A stretch of DNA of 64,000 nucleotides from Gyrodactylus bullatarudis (lineage: Eukaryota; Platyhelminthes; Monogenea; Gyrodactylidea; Gyrodactylidae). A model generated the notes under the pieces. It was given only the letters and a program-made list of their open reading frames with translations, had not been told where the DNA came from and did no database searches. The stretch is taken from contig SSNU01000313.1 in NCBI GenBank assembly GCA_012064415.1, positions 283,152 to 347,151 on the forward strand, read 5' to 3'. Within the stretch, counting starts at the first letter, position 1; each line of letters starts with the position of its first letter. The position numbers were made by a program, and so were the translations under genes. Positions 43,440 through 57,734 of this stretch are shown piece by piece.

Positions 43440-44085
43440 TCACTCCAAGAATTTGATGCTCATCTTTTGTTCTATGTCCACATTTTCAAAAGCCTATACG
43501 ATTTTTAGGTAAAGAATAATAAATAATTTAATTGAAAAAATTACCTGAACGAATTCTTCGTAGGAAATGTAACTATCTCCGTCGAGATCAGCTTCAGTCA
43601 TAGTTCTTTCGCCAATGTTATTAATTTGCTCCATTGTAATATTGGATCCAACCATCATTTGAAGCATTCCAAGAAGTTCAGACGTAGAGATTCGGTTATC
43701 AGCGTCCAAATCATATAGACCAAATAAAAATTTGAGTTTAGCTTCTTTATCATTATATTCAGTGACCTGGTTTTGGCGAACTTTACGGAATCTGGCTAGT
43801 TTTCTCATAAAATCTCGAAAATTAAGCTCTTCGTTTGTATCTTTGAAAAATTCATTGACGATTCTATCTCCAAGAGGATTGATAGCTAATTCAGGAATGA
43901 GCAAAAAATCGTTACGGCGAAGAAAGCCACATCTTTGCTTGTCCAGAGCTGTGAATCTGTTATAAAGGCGGCAAATCTGCTTCGAAGTAACTATTTATGT
44001 GATAAATATATTCCTTACAGCCAGTTTCAATGTTTATATCATCAATTTCAACTTGATCTAAGACCTTGGATGTGGAAGAACCCAT
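43440..44085 (-). CDS. CHP1: Calcineurin B homologous protein (CHP1-like)
   Basis: Minus-strand exons 44085-44019, 43990-43545 and 43493-43440 encode 188 residues (human CHP1 has 195). The first intron is only 28 nt (43991-44018); splicing it yields ETGFTSKQICRLYNRF, matching the CHP1 pattern at exactly that place, so homology proves it. MGSS at the start is an N-myristoylation signal. IPELAINPLGDRI is near-diagnostic for CHP. Two calcium-binding EF loops are intact: residues 116-127 (DLDADNRISTSE) and 157-168 (DLDGDSYISYEE). The end is EQKMSIKFLE. CHP1 binds and stabilises Na+/H+ exchangers, acts in vesicle traffic, and activates the ER acyltransferase GPAT4. It is head to head with SEC24, 292 bp between start codons. 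Confidence 0.9.
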
Positions 44086-44377
44086 TTTTGTGATCTTAAA
44101 TTTAATCGAATACTTTTGAATTGTTGCCCTTCGTTTTCATAACACCCCTTAATACAAATTTGTTTAAAACGATGCCAATTCAAAATAATTTTTACAGTAT
44201 CTAAATTATTGCGACCCTCCCCATATATATATTATCTAGAGTTAAAAGCTCAAAAATCAAAAGAATAATAATTTATTTTCGATTATATGTTATTACAATT
44301 TCCAAATTTGAATCAATTTGTTCTCTATAATAATCATTAAGCGACGTGGATGAAAATTTCAGTTATATAACATTCAA
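44086..44377. promoter_or_regulatory. Bidirectional promoter region CHP1/SEC24
   Basis: These 292 bp separate the two divergent start codons and contain a tatatatatta run (~44223). No specific factor site is claimed. Confidence 0.45.
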
Positions 44378-47300
44378 ATGGCACAATATCCTACACAAAA
44401 TCCCTACGCAGAGAATTCTAACGGTTCGTTAAATTTTTAAATTTCATATCTAGGTCCTTCAATTCAAGACATGAATCAGAATTGTAATCCCGATCAAAGT
44501 TATTATAACTCAGATCCTTGTACAAATTACAACAATTATCCACAACAAAGTTTTGCCACTAGCCAGCCCGTTAATTATGCCCAAGGATTCCTTTATAACC
44601 AACAGCAAACTGTTTATCCTACAATTCAAAATACAAATAACGTCCCAGTATCGGGTTATGCATCCACTCAGCCCTTACAAAATCTTCAACCATATTATAA
44701 TAACGGAAATACTCAAACTCAACCTCAAGTCCAAAATAATATGCAGTATCCAATTAATTCTTACCAACCTCCTATGCCGAATAGTCACAATAATTATCCA
44801 ACTCCAATAATGATGACTAGTGGACAGGACTATCATACAAACAATGCTTTTCCTGCTCGTGATAATCACGGTTATAAAGATCCGAATAAATCATTGACTC
44901 GAGACGAATGGGAAAAGATAACTTCGAATATTAGTGTAATGTATGATAAAAATATTTTACCCTCGGACGGATTTGATTGTGCCAGATATCCCAACATAAA
45001 TACGAAAGTATGTTCAATTTAATTGCTTATTTTGCTCTTATAAAATTTCATTGAAGTTGAAAAATTTATATTTTTCTTTCGAATTAACATATCAAAATAT
45101 CAAAAATAAAATCGACTCTTATTGATAAAATATTGATTTCATATAAATTGATTTATAAAGAGCATACACCAACTGCTTATTATATCAAACTTGATTTATT
45201 ACAAGTCCCAATCTATGGGATGCATCTATCAAACTCTGAAAAGGATTTTTCATCACATCGTTGGTTGATGTGAAAATAAAACTCCAGATCAAGAAATATT
45301 ATTAATTTCTAATCAAATATTTTCAACAAAATCTAGATAAACTGTGATCCCAATCTGCTAAGATGTACATTAACTTCAATACCTTCAAGTGCCAAACTGT
45401 TATCAAAGTCTCGTTTGCCTCTTGGTGTGGTTGTTCAACCGTTTCGAGATCTTAATTCCCTCTGTGTACTACAAACTAAGAATATTGTTCGTTGTCGCAA
45501 TTGCCGGACCTATATCAATCCATTTGTAGTATTCAGAGATTCTGGTCGTCGATGGCAGTGCTCTGTGTGTCTATTAAATAATGCTGTTCCGGATGAATTT
45601 TTTTATGATCCCGTTACAAAATATCACGGAGATCCAACAAGAAGACCTGAAATTAAATCATCAACAGTCGAGTATATTGCTACTAACGAGTACAATAATC
45701 GTCCTCCACAAGCACCTACTTATATATTTTGTCTAAATACAAACCGTGATGCAGTAAGATCTGGCGCCTTGACTCTAGCATGCGAGAGAATTGCTGCAAA
45801 CTTGTTGGAAATTCCAGGTGGCTCTCGAAGACAAGTTGCAATTATTGCCTATGATTCAGCCATCCACTTTTACAAAATAGACGGCAAGTTATTTTTAATT
45901 AAACATTGGTTATTTTGAAAAAAATCATTAACTATTCTCTTTCTAGGCGAGTATCCAAAGGAATATGTTTGCCCTGATGTTGACGAGATCTTCATTCCTG
46001 ATCACGAAAAAATGCTATGCTCTTTAGAATCTGACATGGAAAAGATTGAAGATCTACTCTTGCAGATCCCACAAATATTTGCGACTACAACCGATACTGG
46101 TAATTGTCTTGGTGCAACAATACAGGTAACTCAAAACTTTGATAAATTTATTTGTCTTTAATTTTATTCATTTAAATAATTTTTTTCTTGTTAAAAATAG
46201 GCTGCATTCAAAATGGTCTCAAAGATTGGAGGTAGAATAACCTTGGTGAACAGTACATTGCCAAATATTGGACCTGGCCAATTGAAAAATCGTGAAGAGC
46301 CTGGAGATGGTCTTCAGCCTGATTCGCGTAAACTGCAGCCTTCATGTGATTTCTACAAGCTCCTGGGTCTTGAATGTGCTCAATCACAGGTGGCTGTGGA
46401 TTTGTTCGCTCTCAATAGTCAGTACTCTGATATTGCTACAATTTCAAATGTCTCTCGTTTCTCCAGTGGTCATCTGTTTTACTATCCAAACTTTAATTAT
46501 ATCCCGACTTCGCAAGAAATTGAGAATTTATCTATTACAAACCCAGAGGAGTATAGAAAACACGTAGAAACTATAGAGATTTGGAAAAATTCCAATTCTG
46601 GCTGGATTGAAGCAGATCGTTTTAAGAGAGATTTCGATCGATACATGAAAAGAAGAATTGGATTCGATGCAGTCATGAGAACTCGCTACACACGTGGATT
46701 ATCTATTAAAGTAAGTTTCGTGTCGAATTGTGAATTTTTGTCAATTATTTTTTTATGAAAATTTCTTCTAGACCTTCCATGGATCACAATTTGTTCGATC
46801 AGTTGATCTCCTCTCTCTGCCCAATCTAAGTCCAGATGCTGGATTCGGTATTCAACTCGAGATTGCTGAAGATATCACAGATCCATATGTCATACTTCAA
46901 GTGGCTCTACTATACACTAGTTCAAAATGTGATAGACGTATTCGAGTTCATACGTTATGTTTACCAGTTGTTCATACAGTTGGAGAGGTGTTTCAAGGTG
47001 CCGACCAGGGCGCTATTGCTGCTCTCCTTGGTAAAATGGCTGTTGAAAGATGTCTCACCAGTAGCCTTGGTAATGCTAGAGAAGCTTTGGTACGTACTTT
47101 TTAAAATCAATATCGAGTTAATTTTAGTTGTATTTTTATCATCTGGATTCTCAATAGTTTAATTTAACTTTTTACTATAATTTCAGATTAATGCTTTAGC
47201 TGATGCTCTGAATGCGTTCAATAGTAACTCAAATAATGGAAAAAATGGCATCTCTTCAATGATTCTTCCCTCAAATCTACGCCTTCTTCCTCTCTACATT

Positions 47301-56370: not shown

Positions 56371-56766
56371 TTAAAACTCTTGAGAAATAGGTTTATCTGT
56401 AGCCTTTCCTGATTTCTTTGGGAGAAGAGATGGTAGGATTTGAGGCAGAACACCACCAGCTGGTATGCATACATTTCCGAGGAGTTTATTCAGTTCTTCA
56501 TCGTTTCTCAAGGCCAATTGGATGTGACGAGGAATGATACGAGACTTTTTGTTATCTCTTGCTGCATTTCCAGCTAATTCAAGAATTTCAGCACAGAGAT
56601 ATTCTAGTACAGCAGTTGCATAGATTGGAGCTCCAGCACCAATTCTTTCGCTATATTTTCCTTTTTTAAGGTATCTGCCGATTCTTGAGACGGGGAAGGT
56701 CAGACCAGCCTTTGAGCTCTTCGTCTTTTTTGTTCCCTTGTTAGCAACTTTACCTCTTGCAGACAT
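56371..56766 (-). CDS. H2AX: Histone H2A, H2A.X type
   Basis: A single exon of 131 residues. The histone fold is canonical (AGLTFPVSRIGRYLKKGKYS, then GAGAPIYATAVLEYL, AEILELAGNAARDNKK and IIPRHIQLALRNDEELNKLL). The C-terminus ends SQEF, fitting the SQ-[E/D]-aromatic motif whose Ser is phosphorylated at DNA breaks, so this is an H2A.X. The docking region reads NVCIPAGGVLPQI where most H2As have a Thr-Ile-Ala-Gln-type segment, a mild oddity. It is intronless but has AATAAA just downstream and no stem-loop, as for replication-independent variants. It is head to head with AGPAT, 146 bp between start codons. Confidence 0.92.
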   Translation of the reverse strand: MSARGKVANKGTKKTKSSKAGLTFPVSRIGRYLKKGKYSERIGAGAPIYATAVLEYLCAEILELAGNAARDNKKSRIIPRHIQLALRNDEELNKLLGNVCIPAGGVLPQILPSLLPKKSGKATDKPISQEF

Positions 56767-56912
56767 ATTCAGATAATTTCAAATTCAAAATTAAGTTTAC
56801 ATTTTAAAATTTAAATGAGACATCTTAAAGTCTGTGAAGTTAACCATATGTTGTTAGAATTATGTGAAAATTAAATTTTTGCCGCTAAAAGAAGAGTTTG
56901 GCAAAATTCTCA

Positions 56913-57734
56913 ATGCTGATTTATTCTCTCAAGTTTCTGACAATCGGTGTGTTTTTGCTGTTGGGAACTGGATTCTATGCTATCTATTTTCTATTCAGAG
57001 GAAGAAGCTTTGATAATGGCTAGTAATTGAAATAACTATAATCTTAGCTCATTCTCGCTATATTTAAACAGAATCGCTCGTTTAATTGGCTTAAATCCCA
57101 TCTATTTGGGCAAGAGACCAGGAAACCAGCCATGCATATATATTCTCAATCATCAAAGTCTAATAGATATGCTTGTTTTCTCATTGATTTGGCCAGATAA
57201 AGGATGTCCAGTGATGAAGAGCTCATTAAAATATTACGGATTTTTTGGACTTATGGCTCATTTATGCAAGGCTGTTTTTCTTGATCGAAAGAACTCACGA
57301 AATTCTATCGAAATGATGAATAATGCTGGAAAGATTGTCAAGAGAGAAGAATGTTCCATTCTTTTGTTTCCCGAAGGTACTCGGAGTGATGGTTATAAAA
57401 TATTACCTTTTAAAAAAGGAGCATTTCATATTGCTCTCACCACTCAGTATCCCATTCAGCCGGTAGTTGCAGAAACTTTTCTTCCATTTCTGGACCATAA
57501 AAATTTCACCTTCAAAAAATGTAAGTCAATCTTTAAAAATTTATCTCATAAAAATTCTTATACCTATAATCCATTCTAGATTCACCAAAAGTTCATTTCC
57601 TCCCTCTAATTGAGACAAAAGGAAAAACTGTAGATGATATTGGTGAGTTGATCAAAGCCGCTCACGATTCAATGTCCAAAGTCTTTGATGATTCCGTAAA
57701 TGAGTGGATAGAGGCCTCCAAGAAACTATCCTAA
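56913..57734 (+). CDS. AGPAT: 1-acyl-sn-glycerol-3-phosphate acyltransferase (AGPAT1/2 type)
   Basis: Exons 56913-57022, 57048-57520 and 57580-57734 encode 245 residues. The enzyme adds the second acyl chain to lysophosphatidic acid, making phosphatidic acid in the ER membrane. A hydrophobic N-terminal segment (~2-30) is the membrane anchor. The four acyltransferase blocks are visible: NHQSLID with catalytic His72 and Asp77, VFLDRKNSRN, LFPEGTRSDG (~143-152), and QYPIQPVVA. The first intron is 25 nt (57023-57047, GTAATT...CTTAG), the shortest in the window; the only other nearby acceptor (57070) would create a stop codon. At 245 residues it is a little shorter than human AGPAT1/2 (~280). Confidence 0.88.

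What the first reader, a model, noticed from the sequence alone, without database searches (positions are those of the whole stretch)
43991..57047. A class of 25-35-nt spliceosomal introns
Introns of 28 nt (CHP1, 43991-44018), 30 and 32 nt (TPH, 55850-55879 and 53336-53367), 35 nt (TPH, 53205-53239), 25 nt (AGPAT, 57023-57047) and probably 30 nt (SEC24, 44424-44453) and 31 nt (6103-6133) all have GT..AG ends. In CHP1 and TPH their removal restores family-conserved residues exactly. They coexist with introns of 43-120 nt and of several kb. Most animal spliceosomes need about 40 nt or more; dicyemids are the known animal exception.
Basis: partly seen in the sequence, partly recalled or inferred. 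Interest (0 to 1): 0.8.

Follow-up and report, generated by a model that had tools for sequence, protein, structure and literature searches.

The report
Tiny introns in a Gyrodactylus flatworm
A parasitic flatworm appears to remove gene interruptions only about 23 to 35 letters long, ordinary in kind for flatworms but at the short end of what is reported in animals.

Summary
All seven listed introns have GT..AG ends. Four (CHP1 28 nt; TPH 30, 32, 35) lie inside family-conserved sequence; removing them gives alignments to solved homologues with no gap at the join. A fourth tiny TPH intron was missed (55480-55511, 32 nt). AGPAT 25, SEC24 30 and 6103 31 rest on reading frame only.

The interpretation needs correcting. 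The organism is a gyrodactylid flatworm: cox1 is 89% identical to a Gyrodactylus cluster. Flatworm 'microintrons' are published: peaks ~36/73 bp in tapeworms, 37/90 bp in a fluke, and a bimodal pattern in Gyrodactylus salaris.

Here 14 homology-crossing tiny introns in 9 genes measure 23-35 nt; none of 34 modelled introns is 36-53 nt, and 20 are 54 or longer. In the CCT genes 10 of 19 introns are tiny, and all lie 5' of the longer ones. Three of four tiny TPH introns sit at recalled human PAH positions. U1, U2, U2AF65, SF1 and RED are present. Signal-only scans do not show the class. There is no RNA evidence. New member of a known kind, shorter than the published peaks I could read.

The parts
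43991..44018 (-). CHP1 intron 1, 28 nt, GTAAGG...AATAG
   Evidence: splicing joins ETG|F, no gap to CHP1/p22 chains at the join; unspliced frame stops
55850..55879 (-). TPH intron 1, 30 nt
   Evidence: HP|GFRD, no gap; same base position as human PAH exon end c.441 (PAH letters and exon ends recalled)
55662..55781 (-). TPH intron 2, 120 nt
   Evidence: recalled PAH c.509
55480..55511 (-).
   Evidence: no gap across DF[C]QEY; not a recalled PAH position
54371..55432 (-). TPH intron 4, 1062 nt
   Evidence: recalled PAH c.706
53495..54234 (-). TPH intron 5, 740 nt
   Evidence: recalled PAH c.842
53336..53367 (-). TPH intron 6, 32 nt
   Evidence: KLAT|IYFFTVEFG, no gap; recalled PAH c.969
53205..53239 (-). 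TPH intron 7, 35 nt
   Evidence: AELL|HAVS, no gap; recalled PAH c.1065
57023..57047 (+). AGPAT intron 1, 25 nt, supported by frame only
   Evidence: the spliced product carries the Pfam Acyltransferase domain at residues 61-177, downstream of the join
57521..57579 (+). AGPAT intron 2, 59 nt
   Evidence: by frame
44424..44453 (+).
45884..45946 (+). SEC24 intron 3, 63 nt, GC-AG type (GCAAGT)
   Evidence: best-scored join, gives ID[G]EYPKEY in frame
6103..6133 (+). 31-nt intron in an unidentified short ORF that begins with a hydrophobic segment
   Evidence: by frame

Best explanation
These are ordinary major-spliceosome (U2-type) introns that have shrunk in place to about 23-35 nt: the 'microintron' or 'peak-1' class known from flatworms, here in a gyrodactylid monogenean. 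Shown: family-exact removal in 9 genes, canonical ends, no modelled intron between 35 and 54 nt, 5' clustering in the CCT genes, and (with recalled human coordinates) ancestral positions for three of four tiny TPH introns. Inferred: they are recognised by intron definition, with U1 on a near-consensus donor and U2/U2AF crowded onto a degenerate branch site and the T-rich stretch before the AG. SPF45- or RED/SMU1-type factors may help, as reported for human short introns.
For: Solved-structure alignments with no gap at 14 tiny joins: CHP1, TPH x4 (62), CCT1 (64), CCT4 x2 (65), CCT6 x2 (66), CCT2 (67), CCT8 (68), CCT3 23 nt (81), PSMA7 (88). Unspliced frames break. Length split 23-35 versus 54 and up in 34 modelled introns. 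Pyrimidines at -13..-4 as in longer introns: 7.1 versus 6.7 of 10, P 0.32, 13 versus 20 introns. Order within CCT genes P 0.0023, computed before CCT2's second tiny intron was found. Six of seven TPH introns at recalled PAH exon ends. U1, U2, U2AF65, SF1 and RED present. Organism and published class.
Against: No RNA evidence. A genome-wide motif count gave 130 hits, fewer than the tool's own control (the pattern read backwards: 479), and only a weak excess at 25-35 nt (38 of 89 unique listed hits in 11 of 31 lengths). Two ab initio scans show no excess. YTNAY branch-like motifs are no commoner than in shuffles (10 of 15 versus mean 11.4), so branch points are unassigned. Donors of tiny introns match GTAAGT slightly worse than those of longer ones (4.77 versus 5.25 of 6, P 0.033), opposite to the fluke report.
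Confidence: 0.93

Rival explanations
1. The short stretches are assembly errors or pseudogene lesions rather than introns.
For: Several are not multiples of three and contain stops, as lesions would.
Against: Those listed have GT..AG ends, and removal of exactly that segment gives alignments with no gap at the join in conserved genes. Three of four in TPH fall on recalled PAH intron positions.
Confidence: 0.02
2. They are removed by something other than the spliceosome (tRNA/XBP1-type ligation, or translational bypass).
For: Very short size; branch-site motif not enriched.
Against: Spliceosomal ends, T-rich 3' ends, U1-like donors, and in TPH the same positions and phases as spliceosomal introns of human PAH (recalled).
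Confidence: 0.02
3. They belong to a dicyemid-like animal with a reduced spliceosome.
For: Dicyema introns average 26.2 nt in 16 introns; genome size is similar (67.5 Mb).
Against: cox1 is 89% identical to a Gyrodactylus cluster and 83-84% to Macrogyrodactylus, Cichlidarus and Paragyrodactylus. It lies on one 14.9-kb contig with a nad1-like frame upstream (name by eye). Searched spliceosome parts are present.
Confidence: 0.01
4. They are recently gained mini-introns rather than shrunken old ones.
For: One of four tiny TPH introns is not at a recalled PAH position; two CCT genes have one directly after the ATG.
Against: Three of four tiny TPH introns coincide to the base and phase with recalled PAH exon ends. 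The CCT, CHP1 and PSMA7 positions were not compared.
Confidence: 0.15

Closest known systems
Microintrons of Opisthorchis felineus and other flatworms (Ershov 2019, PMC6530080, passages read)
   Same: A separate class of ultra-short introns beside long ones, clustered and more often toward gene starts
   Different: Published peak is 37 bp; here the middle is about 30-31 nt, with cases of 23 and 28. There splice sites were nearer consensus and the pyrimidine tract often lost; in this small sample donors are slightly weaker and pyrimidine content is unchanged.
Peak-1/peak-2 introns of Taenia, also reported for Gyrodactylus salaris (Wang 2016, PMC5036155, passages read; Hahn 2014 not held)
   Same: Bimodal short introns, with the monogenean named
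   Different: Peaks ~36 and ~73 bp in Taenia, and peak-1 placed toward the 3' end. Here about 30 and 60 nt in a small sample, tiny ones 5' in CCT genes. The G. salaris peak values could not be read.
Dicyema introns (Aruga 2007, PMC2222250, passages read; Lu 2019, PMC6736024, abstract and passages read)
   Same: Spliceosomal introns of about 26 nt in an animal
   Different: [quoted passage not shown] Here tiny introns coexist with introns of 54-1062 nt, often in the same genes.
Human short introns spliced with SPF45/RBM17 or Smu1-RED (PMC8363638, PMC6692369; search listing with abstract starts only)
   Same: Possible helper factors; RED is present here
   Different: The human model intron in that listing is 56 nt. 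SPF45 and SMU1 were not searched for here.

Membership tests
U2-type (major) spliceosomal introns | GT..AG (or GC..AG) ends and exact restoration of the coding frame | tested here: met
U2-type (major) spliceosomal introns | U1 and U2 snRNA with normal pairing sequences in the genome | tested here: met
U2-type (major) spliceosomal introns | Recognisable branch site | tested here: inconclusive
   YTNAY in 10 of 15 versus shuffle mean 11.4
U2-type (major) spliceosomal introns | Removal in RNA | not testable with these tools
   no transcriptome held
Flatworm microintrons / peak-1 introns | Host is a flatworm | tested here: met
Flatworm microintrons / peak-1 introns | Separate length mode below about 40 nt | tested here: met
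   14 of 23-35 nt, none of 36-53, 20 of 54 or more; a small, homology-chosen sample, not seen by signal-only scans
Flatworm microintrons / peak-1 introns | Clustering toward the 5' end | tested here: met
   P 0.0023 for six CCT genes, 0.0011 with TPH, SEC24 and AGPAT; TPH itself does not show it
Flatworm microintrons / peak-1 introns | Closer-to-consensus splice sites, loss of pyrimidine tract (fluke report; a tendency, not a defining feature) | tested here: not met
   donors 4.77 versus 5.25 of 6, pyrimidines 7.1 versus 6.7 of 10 (13 versus 20 introns)
Dicyemid-type uniform tiny introns | Introns uniformly tiny; host a dicyemid | tested here: not met

The most novel reading that the evidence does not exclude
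Gyrodactylids have pushed the flatworm microintron class further than other flatworms: modes near 30 and 60 nt instead of about 36-37 and 73-90, with a working floor near 23 nt, produced by shrinking ancestral introns in place while U1, U2 and U2AF65 stay conventional. If so, the animal major spliceosome needs no special reduction to splice 23-30 nt, and two discrete length classes co-scale.
Probability: 0.4. Interest if true: 0.55.

Novelty: new member of a known kind. Interest (0 to 1): 0.4.

Why it matters
It gives a family-checked set of 23-35 nt introns in an animal with ordinary-looking splicing parts, useful for the question of how short an intron the animal spliceosome can take. Practically, gene-prediction and read-mapping defaults with a higher minimum intron length would break such genes, often near their starts (the fluke paper set its minimum to 20 bp). 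Gyrodactylid BUSCO scores of about 56-63% (table in the passages) might partly reflect this; that link is a guess.

Tried and rejected
Coding-potential scans for GT..AG joins: with 20-codon flanks the 24-38 nt bins held 10 GT..AG joins against 0, 3, 1, 6 and 1 in five control motif sets. The sequence scanned included the CCT loci, so this is not independent. An earlier version had three training pieces in the wrong frame and was set aside. Scans for an ATG exon plus a tiny intron found nothing above controls: 0 versus 0-1, 21 versus 24-43. Whole-genome motif count: 130 hits, only the first 100 listed, 89 after collapsing copies; weak excess at 25-35 nt, and the tool's control (pattern read backwards) had more hits, 479. 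Of two short hits looked up, by eye one overlaps a retroelement-like frame and the other lies in no convincing gene. My guess of a ~29-nt PRP8 intron from the Pfam gap (notes) was wrong: the best join is 71 nt. Dicyemid origin, assembly lesions and non-spliceosomal removal were considered and rejected. Hahn 2014 and Tsai 2013 are not held, so the G. salaris peak values are unknown to me. Two proteasome and N-terminus surveys could not be run.
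Full report
What was claimed. Seven GT..AG introns of 25-35 nt in a 64-kb animal window, said to be a class otherwise known in animals only from dicyemids.

Is it there? Yes. All seven of seven stretches have the stated ends and lengths. In CHP1 the 28-nt segment, once removed, joins ETG to F, and the product aligns to CHP1/p22 chains at 5.4e-51 with no gap at that place; unspliced, the frame stops. For tryptophan hydroxylase I rebuilt the gene (the 5' exon was joined by hand). It has seven introns of 30, 120, 32, 1062, 740, 32 and 35 nt. 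The product aligns to TPH1 and TPH2 chains with no gap over about 280 residues, through every join. AGPAT (25 nt), SEC24 (30 nt) and the ORF at 6103 (31 nt) restore an open frame only; I call them supported, not proved.

Whose genome? The window lies in a 77.3-Mb, 471-contig assembly. Its cox1 reads AAA as Asn at FDRN, AGA/AGG as Ser and TGA as Trp, the flatworm/echinoderm code. The protein is 89% identical to a cluster named for Gyrodactylus albolacustris, 83-84% to Macrogyrodactylus, Cichlidarus and Paragyrodactylus, and 70% to Aglaiogyrodactylus (taxonomy). So this is a monogenean flatworm, Gyrodactylus or very near it. Published Gyrodactylus assemblies are 67-91 Mb with 31-39% GC (table in passages, PMC12677651); the window is about 30% GC.

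Is it a class? I took the Pfam chaperonin family without regard to introns. It gave 14 matches, which resolve into CCT1-CCT8 and an HSP60-like gene (seven subunits named by solved-structure hits; CCT5 and HSP60 by eye). Tiny introns with no gap at the join: CCT1 29 nt, CCT4 29 and 33, CCT6 31 and 30, CCT2 28, CCT8 32 and CCT3 23 nt. For CCT3 the unspliced frame reads MQLPVIVLSKKYL-stop, while removal gives PVIVLNQNTKRE, matching PVLVLSQNTKRE; by inspection I found no other nearby GT..AG join that keeps this. Two more sit directly after the start codon, CCT7 32 nt and CCT2 29 nt. Removal supplies the ATG, but the join lies before the aligned region (CCT7) or was not aligned (CCT2). In the proteasome family (14 matches, 13 with no stop listed inside) I looked into PSMA7 because it was the one with a stop, and into a beta-like gene because its match starts late: PSMA7 has a 31-nt intron crossing a gap-free alignment, the other a 62-nt join.

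Lengths. The 14 homology-crossing tiny introns, in 9 genes, are 23, 28, 28, 29, 29, 30, 30, 31, 31, 32, 32, 32, 33 and 35 nt. Twenty other modelled introns run from 54 nt up (54-75 nt thirteen times, then 97, 109, 118, 120, 329, 740 and 1062), and none of the 34 lies in 36-53 nt (plus CCT3). Of those twenty, eleven lie within alignments. Nine (five in SEC24, and one each in CCT2, AGPAT, PRP8 and the proteasome beta-like gene) are chained by open frame. A DRAP1-like gene in L025 gives another 29-nt candidate, identified by eye only.

Position. In CCT1, 2, 3, 4, 6 and 8 every tiny intron lies 5' of every longer one. A permutation gave P 0.0023, computed before CCT2's second tiny intron was found, and 0.0011 with TPH, SEC24 and AGPAT added. 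TPH itself does not follow the rule. By hand count, with CCT7 and the CCT2 addition, 10 of 19 introns found in the eight CCT genes are tiny; not every 3' gene end was checked.

Age. That suggests old introns shrunk in place. The PAH letters passed seven residue checks in the script; the exon ends come from no call.

Signals. Among the 13 tiny and 20 longer introns, tiny ones keep T-rich 3' ends (7.1 of 10 pyrimidines at -13 to -4, against 6.7; P 0.32), and their donors match GTAAGT slightly less well (4.77 against 5.25 of 6; P 0.033). Branch-like YTNAY motifs occur in 10 of 15, no more than in shuffles. The machinery searched for looks ordinary: three U2 matches, two with the intact GUAGUA (the third lacks it and may be a pseudogene); two U1 matches, of which the one shown has a normal 5' end; U2AF65 over model positions 22-510 in one frame; SF1-HH over positions 36-111 of 114; RED_N; Prp8. 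U2AF35, SPF45 and SMU1 were not searched for.

Results against. Signal alone does not show the class clearly. A whole-genome count of GGTAAGT N8-38 TTTTAG gave 130 hits, fewer than the tool's control, the pattern read backwards (479). Among 89 unique of the 100 listed, 38 fell in 25-35 nt (3.5 per length) and 51 at the other 20 lengths (2.6 per length), a weak excess. Scans for ATG exons followed by tiny introns showed none. I therefore give no genome-wide number. There is no RNA.

What is known. Ershov 2019 (PMC6530080, passages) has a section 'Trematode genomes include many microintrons': peaks at 37 and 90 bp, 34% of introns under 75 bp, more often at gene starts, seen in other flatworms too. 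Wang 2016 (PMC5036155, passages) gives ~36 and ~73 bp for Taenia and says the pattern was also observed in Gyrodactylus salaris. Dicyema introns average 26.2 nt in 16 introns (PMC2222250, passages) and 38.2 nt genome-wide (PMC6736024, abstract and passages). Hahn 2014 and Tsai 2013 are not held. Ten text searches of an open-licence library listed no further Gyrodactylus short-intron description that I recognised; I did not open every paper listed.

Verdict. A real class and a known kind. What may be new is how short it is here (about 30-31 nt in the middle, 23 nt at the floor, with a second group near 60), tiny introns hard against the ATG, and the suggestion that three are ancestral introns shrunk in place.

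Noticed in passing
window 45884-45946 (+): SEC24 intron 3 looks like a GC-AG intron with a strong GCAAGT donor.
   Followed up: partly
L016 reverse complement 1382-1413; L020 reverse complement 1348-1376: CCT7 and CCT2 each carry a tiny intron (32 and 29 nt) directly after the ATG. A possible link to the AUG-ending spliced leaders recalled for some flatworms is untested.
   Followed up: partly
window 39486-40675 (+): MULE/Mutator transposase domain in the first frame (39486-40082), continued by eye. Mutator elements are reported as the commonest TIR type in G. kobayashii.
   Followed up: no
window 15303-16517 and 51503-52424 (+): First: Pfam reverse-transcriptase match, GIY-YIG-like tail by eye (Penelope-like). 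Second: similar by eye, no Pfam hit in the part scanned (51503-52189). Described only.
   Followed up: no
window 3923-4623 (+): Mariner-like transposase fragment next to a GIY-YIG-like reading frame, by eye.
   Followed up: no
window 56371-56766 (-): Single-exon histone H2A-like gene between TPH and AGPAT, by eye.
   Followed up: no
window 59249-59321 (-): tRNA gene (Rfam).
   Followed up: no
window 22003-23727 (+): Large exon in a GC-richer stretch with a borderline RA (Ras-association) domain match.
   Followed up: no
L004 1501-1688: Third U2 match lacks the GUAGUA branch-pairing stretch, possibly a U2 pseudogene.
   Followed up: no
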